NCBI RefSeq assembly: GCF_025370785.1
Contig: NZ_JAMXFA010000003.1
Location: 124,001 to 188,000, forward strand
Direction of reading: 5' to 3'
DNA: 64,000 nt
Source of the DNA: Laspinema olomoucense D3b
GTDB taxonomy: Bacteria; Cyanobacteriota; Cyanobacteriia; Cyanobacteriales; Laspinemataceae
Positions 17,629-20,024 of this stretch are shown here, one piece after another (the first letter of the stretch is position 1; every line of letters starts with the position of its first letter). A program made the translations under genes and the position numbers. The notes under the pieces were generated by a model. The model was given only the letters and a program-made list of their open reading frames with translations. It had not been told where the DNA came from and made no database searches.

Positions 17629-17845
17629 ACAAAAGTTTACGTGTTTTCTCCCGGACCATTTCCAGGCAGTTGAGAGCCAAAAATCAAAAGTTGGTTTATG
17701 GTGATATTGCAATATTTTTAAACTTAAATTTTGATGGCTAACTTGAGATTTACCCTCACTTATCTTTGCAGCTACACCATAAAAATTTGCCTGAAATTCT
17801 CGTAACATCCCCCGGAGAGGCTCTTAAAAAAAACTGAAAACCCCC

Positions 17846-17874
17846 TTGACAGTCAAAAGCAGAGGCTCTTTAAT
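17846..17874 (+). promoter_or_regulatory. Sigma-70 type promoter of the secreted-protein cluster
   Basis: TTGACA (17846-17851), a 17-bp spacer and TTTAAT (17869-17874) make a near-consensus promoter. It shows that translation of the next gene cannot begin at the TTG of 17846 and supports a start at 17954 or later. Confidence 0.65.
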
Positions 17875-17953
17875 GGAGAAGTTCAGAGGATTAAAGAGGG
17901 TAGCGCCATCGCTCCACTCTTTAACCCTTACTCACTTCAAACCCGACAAAACA

Positions 17954-18361
17954 ATGATTATCTCTCTCAAGGCTTATCAAACCGTTGCTCAAGCTGTCAA
18001 AATGCCGAAACTCAGTGCCGTCTTGGGTTTACTCACCCTCGCCACTTTAGGCATTGCACCCCTGCCTGCTCAAGCTGGGGGATACCGCGTCAGTGGGGAT
18101 AGTGCAGTAGTGCAAACCAGTGAACAACGTGCGGTTGTAACAGGCAATGGAAACTTTGTTGACCAAAATTCCACCCAAACTAATATCGATCGCCGGGGGG
18201 GTGGAGTCGGAAACCAAGGGGTTGTTCAGGACCAATTGCAGAATGCGGATGTTTACGGACATCACAATCAAGTGCGGCAAAGCAATCGTCAAACTACTGT
18301 GGAAGCGGATACCACACGGTTTGCACCTCGCCCTCGTCCTCACTATCAAAAGAAACATTAA
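17954..18361 (+). CDS. Small secreted TGNGN-motif protein A
   Basis: A 135-residue exported protein. From the ATG at 17954 it has an extended signal peptide (core LSAVLGLLTLATLGIAPLP, cleavage after PAQA); ATG 18002 is an alternative start. The mature part is rich in Gln, Asn, Val and Gly, and carries VVTGNGNFVDQNSTQTNI and NADVYGHHNQVRQSNRQT, two similar units about 45 residues apart that resemble curlin or beta-solenoid repeats. It ends in a basic His/Pro-rich tail. First of four consecutive exported-protein genes behind a good promoter. No established family is recognised; an extracellular or amyloid-like subunit is an inference. Confidence 0.65.
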   Translation: MIISLKAYQTVAQAVKMPKLSAVLGLLTLATLGIAPLPAQAGGYRVSGDSAVVQTSEQRAVVTGNGNFVDQNSTQTNIDRRGGGVGNQGVVQDQLQNADVYGHHNQVRQSNRQTTVEADTTRFAPRPRPHYQKKH

Positions 18362-18444
18362 GGCGATCGCCTGTAAACGACTCCCGATCCTGACGTCGGG
18401 TGATATCTATCCCGACGTTATTGCCTTTACTCACGGTATCAATC

Positions 18445-18771
18445 ATGTTCACACATTTGATCCGAGTCAGTCTGGCTGCTATCCTTTCCACCGGGGCGAT
18501 CGCCACTCCCCTAGCGGCACAAGTCTCACCGGGCAACAATCGCCCCCCGCTTCCCTCCATTGATCAACAAACGGCGATTACCGGCAACGGTAACACCGTT
18601 AACCAAAACATCAATCTGTATTATGTTGATCCCCCGGGTCGGATCTTTCCGAATTCCGCTGTGCCATCCTCCAACCGCCTACACCAATCGATTAGCCCCA
18701 GTCTTATCCGCACTCCGGCTAATCTTCCCCACGCTTCTTCCCGAAACCATCAAAATTTTATCCGCCACTAA
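18445..18771 (+). CDS. Small secreted TGNGN-motif protein B
   Basis: A 108-residue exported protein starting at the ATG of 18445, with signal peptide MFTHLIRVSLAAILSTGAIA and cleavage near LAAQ. The mature part contains QQTAITGNGNTVNQNINLYY, which aligns with the TGNGN unit of protein A, then a Pro/Ser/Asn-rich tail without cysteines. 83 bp downstream of gene A on the same strand. The frames 18147-18563 and 18560-18796 are shadows of genes A and B. Function unknown. Confidence 0.6.
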   Translation: MFTHLIRVSLAAILSTGAIATPLAAQVSPGNNRPPLPSIDQQTAITGNGNTVNQNINLYYVDPPGRIFPNSAVPSSNRLHQSISPSLIRTPANLPHASSRNHQNFIRH

Positions 18772-18907
18772 TGGCCTAATTTTGATAATTCCGTGAAAGC
18801 GATATCAGAGTCAATCTCGGTGCATCCCCTTTATTTTCTGTCAGTTCATCGGTAAGGAATCACTTCCTTTTTGCTTCTGTATTTAGTTATCATCCTCGGA
18901 AAAGTTC

Positions 18908-19327
18908 ATGAAAAAATCTTCATTTCTAAACAGTTTATCCATTGCCGCCTTATTCAGCATTGCCCCCCTTACTACGGATTTAGCTGCCGCGCAATGTGTG
19001 CAAATTGATACCGGCGTGCAGATTTCCATCAGTGGCGGAGGTCCGGCCCAGCAAACCAATACCGTAGACATGGGAAACCAAAACAGTTGTGGTCGCAATG
19101 CCACCGTTACCACAGGAACCCAAATTCATGTTGGACCGAATCGGGCAGTTCAAAACCGTTCTGTTCGTCAGTCCGTCCAAGGGGGAGAGCGATCGCTCAG
19201 GCCAAGCAGCTATCCCGTGCAGATTCAGGTCAATCCTAAAATCCACGTAGATAATCCCGCCGATCGCCTGAACTCTATTAATAATCCCGCCCTTCGCTAT
19301 CGAGAACAACTGCGGTTAATTGAGTAA
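18908..19327 (+). CDS. Small secreted Asn/Gln-rich protein C
   Basis: A 139-residue exported protein with a clear signal peptide (MKKSSFLNSLSIAALFSIAP, cleavage near LAAA). The mature region alternates beta-prone segments: VQIDTGVQISISGGG, TNTVDMGNQNSCGRNATVTT and GTQIHVGPNRAVQNRSVRQS. A cysteine pair (AQCVQ and NSCGR) could form one disulfide. The spacing and N/Q/G content match proteins A and B. A weak GGA ribosome-binding sequence lies 10 bp before ATG. Third gene of the cluster; no family recognised. Confidence 0.65.
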   Translation: MKKSSFLNSLSIAALFSIAPLTTDLAAAQCVQIDTGVQISISGGGPAQQTNTVDMGNQNSCGRNATVTTGTQIHVGPNRAVQNRSVRQSVQGGERSLRPSSYPVQIQVNPKIHVDNPADRLNSINNPALRYREQLRLIE

Positions 19328-19391
19328 TTGAAAGGGATTAAACGAATGAGTTAGATTGACCGTTGTTTGTTTTGTAGTTAGGACCAAAATA

Positions 19392-20024
19392 ATGTATAGA
19401 ACCATAAAATTTGTGGGGTATTTAATCAAACCGCCCCACGGTGTGAAATGGGTTGCCTTGTTCACATCCTTAGCCGCCTTGATGGTGGGTGCGACTCAGG
19501 CCCAGTCCCAGATGTCAATTGAGGTCGATGATCGCGGAATTCGAGTAGAATCCGAGGGCGGATTGAGTATTGAATCCGTCCGCAGTCGCCTAGGGCAACA
19601 GACTCACTTAGACCGATCGCGATTTGGGTGGATTATTTTTCCGATTGATCGCCCCGTTCTGTTATCTCAGTCGGCGTATTCCCGGCAGTCCCGCCGAAGT
19701 ACCCTGTCTCAAACCCAAGAAACCACCGGGATTACTGTGGATTCCGACCCATTAGCCCTGGAAGTTTGGGGCGATCGCGGCACTTACATCAATGCCGAGA
19801 TTGTGATTGATGGGAAAGTGGTGGAAACCATTCGCGGCAACTATACGGCGATCAACCTCTCGTCTTATCTCAATCCCGGCACAAATGAAATTGAAATCAC
19901 CGGGAATTATACGCCCGCTAATTCTAACATTTATGTGGAGTTAACCGGCGATCGCAATATGGTCAGGCATGAAACAAGTGGTACAGGCCGCCTCAATCAA
20001 ACCCTGCTTCTTGACCAGCGTTGA
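19392..20024 (+). CDS. Secreted beta-rich protein D of the same cluster
   Basis: A 210-residue exported protein from the ATG at 19392, with signal peptide core WVALFTSLAALMVGATQAQ. The middle part is Ser/Gln-rich (SQSAYSRQSRRSTLSQTQ). The C-terminal 100 residues look like a beta-sandwich (ALEVWGDRGTYINAEIVIDG, NLSSYLNPGTNEIEITGNYT) that would bind or anchor rather than polymerise, followed by ELTGDRNMVRHETSGTG, which resembles the TGNGN unit. It lies 64 bp after gene C. A role as assembly or anchoring partner of A-C is an inference from position alone. Confidence 0.6.
   Translation: MYRTIKFVGYLIKPPHGVKWVALFTSLAALMVGATQAQSQMSIEVDDRGIRVESEGGLSIESVRSRLGQQTHLDRSRFGWIIFPIDRPVLLSQSAYSRQSRRSTLSQTQETTGITVDSDPLALEVWGDRGTYINAEIVIDGKVVETIRGNYTAINLSSYLNPGTNEIEITGNYTPANSNIYVELTGDRNMVRHETSGTGRLNQTLLLDQR

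What the first reader, a model, noticed from the sequence alone, without database searches (positions are those of the whole stretch)
17846..20024. Four-gene cluster of small exported proteins sharing TGNGN-type motifs
Four consecutive plus-strand genes (17954-18361, 18445-18771, 18908-19327, 19392-20024) follow one near-consensus promoter. All encode signal peptides. A has VVTGNGNFVDQNSTQTNI, B has TAITGNGNTVNQNINLYY, C has NTVDMGNQNSCGRNATVTT, and D has ELTGDRNMVRHETSGTG. The repeated N/Q/G/V pattern resembles curlin or beta-solenoid subunits. D differs in having a beta-sandwich-like C-terminus. Together they could form an uncharacterised extracellular fibre or surface assembly, with D as partner or anchor. 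I recognise no established family for any of them.
Basis: partly seen in the sequence, partly recalled or inferred. Interest (0 to 1): 0.7.

Follow-up and report, generated by a model that had tools for sequence, protein, structure and literature searches.

The report
Conserved cyanobacterial exported β-repeat gene cluster
Four neighbouring small genes in a filamentous cyanobacterium encode exported proteins that recur together in many other cyanobacteria; two of them are built from an unusual mirror-symmetric hairpin repeat and may assemble on the cell surface, and no known protein family was found for any of the four.

Summary
The four ORFs are real, open and under purifying selection in 8 of 8 genomes of the genus, behind one invariant promoter. 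None reaches a Pfam or NCBIfam cut-off. The cluster recurs far outside the genus: of 31 named cyanobacterial loci holding gene C, 30 have an A-type gene upstream (26 of 27 outside this genus), 18 have D directly downstream, 19 have a further Cys-pair protein (E) between A and C, and 3 have a protein F.

The "shared motif" holds only for A and B. A carries two related repeats, B one; for C and D no kinship to them was detected. The repeat is a symmetric strand-turn-strand: all 16 Cys-bearing repeats among 108 carry exactly two Cys at mirrored positions about the turn glycine, and covariation peaks at the same register without them.

D ends in a predicted Ig-like β-sandwich. It is not curli by sequence: no Curlin_rpt match, no profile similarity to CsgA/B, no CsgG in the genus. 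Best reading: an undescribed exported β-hairpin assembly with Ig-like and Cys-pair partners. Polymerisation, disulfides and surface location are inferred, not shown.

The parts
17816..17825 (+). First copy of AGAGGCTCTT (contains the near-palindrome AGAG-G-CTCT), possible operator
   Evidence: Identical in 8 of 8 genomes of the genus in the upstream alignment
17846..17874 (+). Promoter TTGACA-17-TTTAAT; the second AGAGGCTCTT copy (17861-17870) overlaps the -10 hexamer
   Evidence: Both hexamers invariant in 8 of 8 genomes
17878..17938 (+). 5' leader predicted to fold into a long hairpin
   Evidence: -25.3 kcal/mol, z -5.12, 0 of 200 shuffles as stable; conserved in 8 of 8, but 0 of 32 consensus pairs show a compensatory change; no Rfam match
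17954..18361 (+). Gene A: exported protein, 135 aa, two mirror-hairpin repeats (an internal Met at 18002 is an alternative start)
18104..18187 (+). A repeat 1 (turn Gly64, Asn67)
   Evidence: Alignment A4, mirrored ladder
18218..18301 (+). A repeat 2 (turn Gly102)
   Evidence: Related to repeat 1 at 97% hhalign probability
18445..18771 (+). Gene B: exported protein, 108 aa, one repeat of the A kind (about 18559-18618) and a Pro/Asn/Ser-rich tail; least constrained of the four
18908..19327 (+). Gene C: exported protein, 139 aa, with Cys30 and Cys61 invariant in the 47-row alignment; marker used to find the cluster elsewhere
19392..20024 (+). Gene D: exported protein, 210 aa, low-confidence N-terminal part and C-terminal Ig-like β-sandwich (about residues 108-210, 19713-20021)

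Best explanation
A conserved cyanobacterial operon that makes an exported β-rich assembly. A (and B) pass the inner membrane by Sec. Each repeat folds as a symmetric strand-turn-strand around G-x-x-N, so one face carries a mirrored ladder: Q/Q, often S/S, Q/Q, small or aliphatic/small or aliphatic. In some relatives one rung is replaced by a Cys pair, i.e. a likely disulfide lock. Edges of these hairpins then stack into a fibre, sheet or coat at the cell surface. C and E, each with an invariant Cys pair, are structural partners; D's Ig-like domain is an accessory (anchor, cap or anti-aggregation factor). Shown here: the genes, synteny, A-B kinship, the mirrored register, and D's sandwich as a predicted model. 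Inferred: disulfides, polymerisation, outer location, roles of C, D and E.
For: Synteny: A upstream of C in 30 of 31 named loci, E between in 19, D next in 18. In a 386-genome sample of the phylum A is found in 21 genomes, C in 21, D in 16; 19 hold both A and C, 13 both C and D. Mirror: 16 of 16 Cys-bearing repeats have exactly two Cys, 12 at (-4,+5) and 4 at (-8,+9), offset sum +1. APC-corrected mutual information averaged by offset sum peaks at +1: 0.067 against 0.0035 (sd 0.008, highest 0.022) in 60 column shuffles, and 0.0455 in the 92 repeats without Cys; the next register with at least 6 pairs has 0.027 and 0.026. Residue class agrees at -4/+5, -6/+7, -8/+9, -10/+11 in 72, 81, 50, 94% of repeats and at the odd offsets between in 13-35%. 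AlphaFold places four 14-residue strands there. Mature A is 21% Q+N, A-type mean 25%. D sandwich; a D homologue scores 9.9e-5 against Pfam Big_7, just under its cut-off. At three loci a protein of 358-368 aa beside the cluster holds a stretch matched by the A profile and a PEP-CTERM-like tail read by eye (NCBIfam sees it in 1 of 3, below cut-off): a weak hint of surface placement.
Against: No experiment. The A model has mean pLDDT 58 and pTM 0.36 and no PDB match (4 rows, best E 4.5). Hairpin and β-arch cannot be told apart, and the model's strands centre about one residue from the Cys-pair register. The mirror stops at the ends: -2/+3 agrees in 6% and -12/+13 in 18% of repeats. Cys outside the 28-residue repeat windows do not all obey it: L023 and L111 do (-20,+21), L022, L102, L103 and L141 do not. 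9 of the 12 (-4,+5) cases come from related Pleurocapsales-type loci, and column shuffles do not keep relatedness. No secretion channel was recognised in the cluster or among flank families shared by 4 or more loci. Two repeats per protein is few for a fibre subunit. The cluster is patchy: no match in 6 of 6 genomes of other genera of the same family.
Confidence: 0.5

Rival explanations
1. Non-polymerising exported matrix proteins: A-D are periplasmic or sheath proteins that bind polysaccharide, ions or water (for example in desiccation or EPS organisation) as monomers or small complexes.
For: Small, Q/N-rich proteins, often with Arg-rich tails; D's generic Ig/FnIII-like domain resembles pilin and carbohydrate-enzyme modules among non-significant Foldseek rows; few repeats per protein.
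Against: The strict mirrored Q ladder is more than a disordered binder needs.
Confidence: 0.28
2. Secreted antagonism or signalling: A/B are diffusible toxins or signals and C-E their processing or immunity partners.
For: The number of tandem A copies varies, as it does for some exported antagonists. M16-like peptidase ORFs (named by eye) lie upstream of the cluster in two lineages (L075, L024).
Against: No immunity or transporter gene was recognised among flank families shared by 4 or more loci; cluster proteins carry signal-peptide-like starts by eye; purifying selection within the genus; no bacteriocin family among NCBIfam hits, bar a chance-level RiPP row (E 0.24) for one D homologue.
Confidence: 0.08
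3. True curli: divergent CsgA/B with CsgC-like D.
For: G-x-x-N-x-x-x-Q pattern; Ig-like D recalling CsgC (from memory).
Against: Curlin_rpt in 0 of 59 genomes while the E. coli control rings; hhalign to CsgA 0.7%, CsgB 0.6%, D to CsgC 0.6%; CsgG in 0 of 8 genomes of the genus and in 12 of 59 relatives, only one of which (G041) also has a cluster gene.
Confidence: 0.03
4. Chance: unrelated low-complexity exported proteins.
For: C and D do not share the motif.
Against: Conserved order in distant cyanobacteria, purifying selection, reversed-profile controls fail.
Confidence: 0.02

Closest known systems
Curli (CsgA/CsgB, CsgC, CsgG; Pfam PF07012)
   Same: Small exported proteins with Q/N/G strand-turn-strand repeats, two subunit types, an Ig-like small partner, operon layout (works like, at most; curli features partly recalled).
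   Different: Other spacing (Q at -10, -6, +7, +11 from the turn Gly; curlin spacing is recalled), strands of about 14 residues in the model, no profile match, no CsgG in the genus.
EbfG1-4 of Synechococcus elongatus (PMC9981879, passages read)
   Same: Four-gene cyanobacterial operon of small exported matrix proteins, some amyloid-forming.
   Different: EbfG carry double-glycine secretion motifs and involve the C39-family PteB; A-D have Sec-type signal peptides by eye. Sequences were not compared.
PEP-CTERM / cyanoexosortase substrates
   Same: Neighbouring 358-368-aa proteins in L109, L145, L146 pair the repeat with a PEP-like tail (tail by eye).
   Different: No such match for A-D; only L145 shows a PEP-CTERM row, below cut-off.
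Bacterial Ig/FnIII-like domains (Big_7, pilin EbpB modules)
   Same: D's C-terminal sandwich.
   Different: No significant PDB match by fold (best E 7.3e-3) or by sequence.

Membership tests
Curli / curlin (PF07012) | Match to the Curlin_rpt model | tested here: not met
   0 of 59 genomes at E <= 0.01; E. coli control rings; not among the hits of A-D or of the 21 members of A1 at E <= 1
Curli / curlin (PF07012) | Profile similarity to CsgA/CsgB | tested here: not met
   hhalign 0.7% and 0.6%; the targets were single E. coli sequences, so a weak test
Curli / curlin (PF07012) | CsgG secretion channel in the genome | tested here: not met
   0 of 8 genomes of the genus; 4 of 14 control genomes ring
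Curli / curlin (PF07012) | Amyloid fibre formation | not testable with these tools
   Needs protein
CsgC / CsgH-like | Sequence kinship of D with CsgC | tested here: not met
   hhalign 0.6% against single-sequence CsgC; CsgH not compared
Ig-like β-sandwich domain | Two-sheet sandwich of about 100 residues | tested here: inconclusive
   Confident strands; weak Foldseek matches to Ig/FnIII-like modules; one homologue just under the Big_7 cut-off
EbfG | Double-glycine leader | tested here: not met
   A-D begin with Sec-type signal peptides (sequence reading)
PEP-CTERM proteins | C-terminal PEP-CTERM motif | tested here: not met
   No NCBIfam hit for A-D at E <= 10

The most novel reading that the evidence does not exclude
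A previously unrecognised cyanobacterial surface-fibre system, unrelated to curli, whose subunits are one or two palindromic β-hairpins that polymerise through mirrored glutamine ladders and in some lineages are locked by a disulfide across one rung, with C, E and an Ig-like D as dedicated partners.
Probability: 0.33. Interest if true: 0.82.

Novelty: new variant of a known kind. Interest (0 to 1): 0.62.

Why it matters
Protein components of cyanobacterial sheaths and biofilms are poorly known (own knowledge). This gives a defined, syntenic set of small exported proteins, present in several filamentous and colonial genera, with a structural rule (mirrored ladder) that predicts which residues pair. 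It turns 'what holds a cyanobacterial mat together' into a gene-deletion and fibre-assay question.

Tried and rejected
Shared motif in all four proteins: not upheld for C and D. Curli: not upheld. Weak Pfam rows for A, C, D, E, F homologues (for example INV_N 0.0012 in 3 of 21 A-type members, ComGE 0.0032 for one D homologue) were taken as chance, all below cut-off or over signal peptides. PHROGs gave one row, D at 0.038. Phage or plasmid origin: one C homologue (L119) had no match at 1e-5 in 72,556 plasmid or 50,697 phage records; the other proteins were not tried. A conserved transporter or regulator: of the flank ORFs of 38 loci, families shared by 4 or more loci were sister loci, antisense ORFs, a PAS kinase, a WD-repeat-like protein and, in two lineages, M16-like peptidases (names by eye); a Crp/Fnr-type regulator precedes the cluster in the three Nostoc/Fortiea loci. 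E and F in the window's genus: F in 0 of 19 genomes, a panel without a positive; E in 0 of 8 apart from weak hits in two sister genomes that fall inside D (E 0.002-0.003; three positive genomes rang). This suggests an E-like N-terminus in D, but hhalign gives only 29% (reversed 0.4%): left open. F vs B: 90% with signal peptides, 21% without: left open. 5' leader: stable, but too conserved for covariation, and no second copy in the genome below E 1.9. PDB sequence search with A, C, D profiles: nothing below 0.4. Papers searched: no description seen in the listings; the library lacks most subscription papers. Rows chosen: A4 used 54 of 78 non-redundant A-labelled sequences (left out: 7 B copies of the genus, all 12 copies downstream of C, 5 truncated or odd ones); A6 47 of 48, A9 29 of 30, A5 37 of 37, A7 11 of 11; A8 3 genus B copies plus 11 of 12 downstream copies.

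Full report
Observation. The window holds four consecutive + strand ORFs A-D at the stated places. None reaches a curated cut-off in Pfam (best DUF3060 0.079 for A) or gives any NCBIfam row; PHROGs gives one row, 0.038 for D. In the 7 other genomes of the genus A is 90-99%, C 88-90% and D 84-88% identical; B reads open over 108 codons in all 8 (starts chosen to match the window's length). Four named loci share contig lengths with genomes of this genus: Laspinema sp., Phormidium pseudopriestleyi and two Oscillatoria sp. All four genes are under purifying selection, B least (median dN/dS 0.12, 0.34, 0.16, 0.22; 28 pairs each). One promoter (TTGACA-17-TTTAAT) is invariant in 8 of 8, with a 10-base repeat AGAGGCTCTT upstream and again over the -10. 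The leader folds stably (z -5.12), without covariation, and has no second copy in the genome below E 1.9.

Distribution. Among 59 sampled relatives A is found in 17 and C in 16 at E <= 0.01 (one C match, G029, is weak and holds stops), D in 11 at E <= 0.001, but none in the 6 genomes of other genera of the same family. In a 386-genome sample of the phylum A is in 21, C in 21 and D in 16, 19 with both A and C and 13 with both C and D. At most 8 to 12 candidates per genome were scored and D was sought with only 7 rows, so these are lower bounds. A scan of named genomes with the C alignment gave 31 loci in 28 assemblies, among them Argonema, Crocosphaera, Nostoc, Fortiea, Hyella, Xenococcaceae, Hydrococcus, Leptolyngbya and Nodosilinea. 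Gene maps with profiles for A, C, D, E, F: A within 1.6 kb upstream of C in 30 of 31 (in the exception C lies 335 bases from the contig's start), E between in 19, D within 400 bases downstream in 18, an A/B-type gene downstream in 7, F in 3. Six Leptolyngbya-type loci also share an E-like ORF that the profile did not count. In the tree of C (47 rows) the named Nostoc/Fortiea, Pleurocapsales-type, Crocosphaera and Leptolyngbya-type rows group by kind, but rows of families f8 and f33 fall in two places each, and G149 and G182 hold both forms: so at least two forms of C exist, and transfer cannot be excluded.

The repeat. Mature A contains two related repeats (hhalign 97%; reversed control 7%) and B one (96%; reversed 1.4%); C is not detectably related (0.7%). 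The 86% of A vs C covers the signal peptide alone. Taking the turn glycine as 0, the best-kept residues are Q-10, Q-6, G0, N+3, Q+7, Q+11 (85-100% in 54 sequences). The Q pairs mirror about +0.5. Of 108 stacked repeats from 54 sequences, 16 hold Cys; all 16 hold exactly two, 12 at (-4,+5) and 4 at (-8,+9), both with offset sum +1. Nine of the 12 are from related Pleurocapsales-type loci. Cys outside the 28-residue windows obey the rule in L023 and L111 (-20,+21) but not in L022, L102, L103 and L141. Mutual information averaged by offset sum peaks at +1, also without Cys repeats, outside 60 column shuffles and above every other register with at least 6 pairs. Column shuffles do not keep relatedness, so the excess is not a probability. 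Offsets -4, -6, -8, -10 mirror (50-94% same class), the odd ones between do not (13-35%), nor do -2/+3 (6%) and -12/+13 (18%). AlphaFold agrees on four strands, at low confidence, with a register about one residue off. A hairpin and a β-arch would both give this pattern.

The partners. D's last ~100 residues form a confident predicted β-sandwich, nearest to generic Ig/FnIII-like modules at non-significant E-values, with other folds (NAD kinase) between them. C has two invariant Cys in 47 of 47 rows, E two in 29 of 29. F pairs a conserved NTEN-D-x-G core with a tail that looks coiled-coil by eye. F was not found in the window's genus and E only as weak hits inside D.

Mechanism. Export by Sec is read from the signal peptides. 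Symmetric hairpins with Q ladders, a conserved partner set and a near-consensus promoter suit a structural extracellular assembly; the longer proteins with the repeat and a PEP-like tail beside three loci hint weakly at surface placement. Polymerisation is not shown.

Known things. Curli is not supported as family; the survey of curli systems (PMC3521004, passages read) reports at least four phyla. EbfG1-4 (PMC9981879, passages read) is the nearest described cyanobacterial analogue in layout but has double-glycine motifs and involves the C39-family protein PteB. No description of this cluster was seen in the listings of the paper searches.

Noticed in passing
L109:2705-3808, L145:2090-3193, L146:1660-2733: Proteins of 358-368 aa beside the cluster; one stretch of each is matched by the A profile, further widely spaced repeats and a PEP-CTERM-like tail are seen by eye (TIGR02595 row in L145 only, below cut-off).
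   Followed up: partly
L108:4030-4620 (also L106, L116): A Crp/Fnr-type regulator (NCBIfam PtrA 1.9e-29, below cut-off) directly upstream of the cluster in Nostoc and Fortiea; possible regulator.
   Followed up: partly
window:17816-17870: Two invariant near-palindromic AGAGGCTCTT copies 45 bp apart, the second overlapping the -10, look like operators.
   Followed up: partly
L075:1486-4847, L024:11770-13281: M16-like peptidase ORFs (named by eye) upstream of the cluster in two lineages.
   Followed up: no
window:22087-22278 (-): A 63-codon fragment beginning like an NAD-dependent sugar epimerase, probably a truncated gene.
   Followed up: no
L081:5307-5783: Next to a C homologue lies an N/Q/S/G-rich repeat protein; the same genome (G041) has a CsgG match.
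   Followed up: no
window:20496-20537 (-): A 17-pair terminator-like hairpin between D and the convergent permease-like gene.
   Followed up: no
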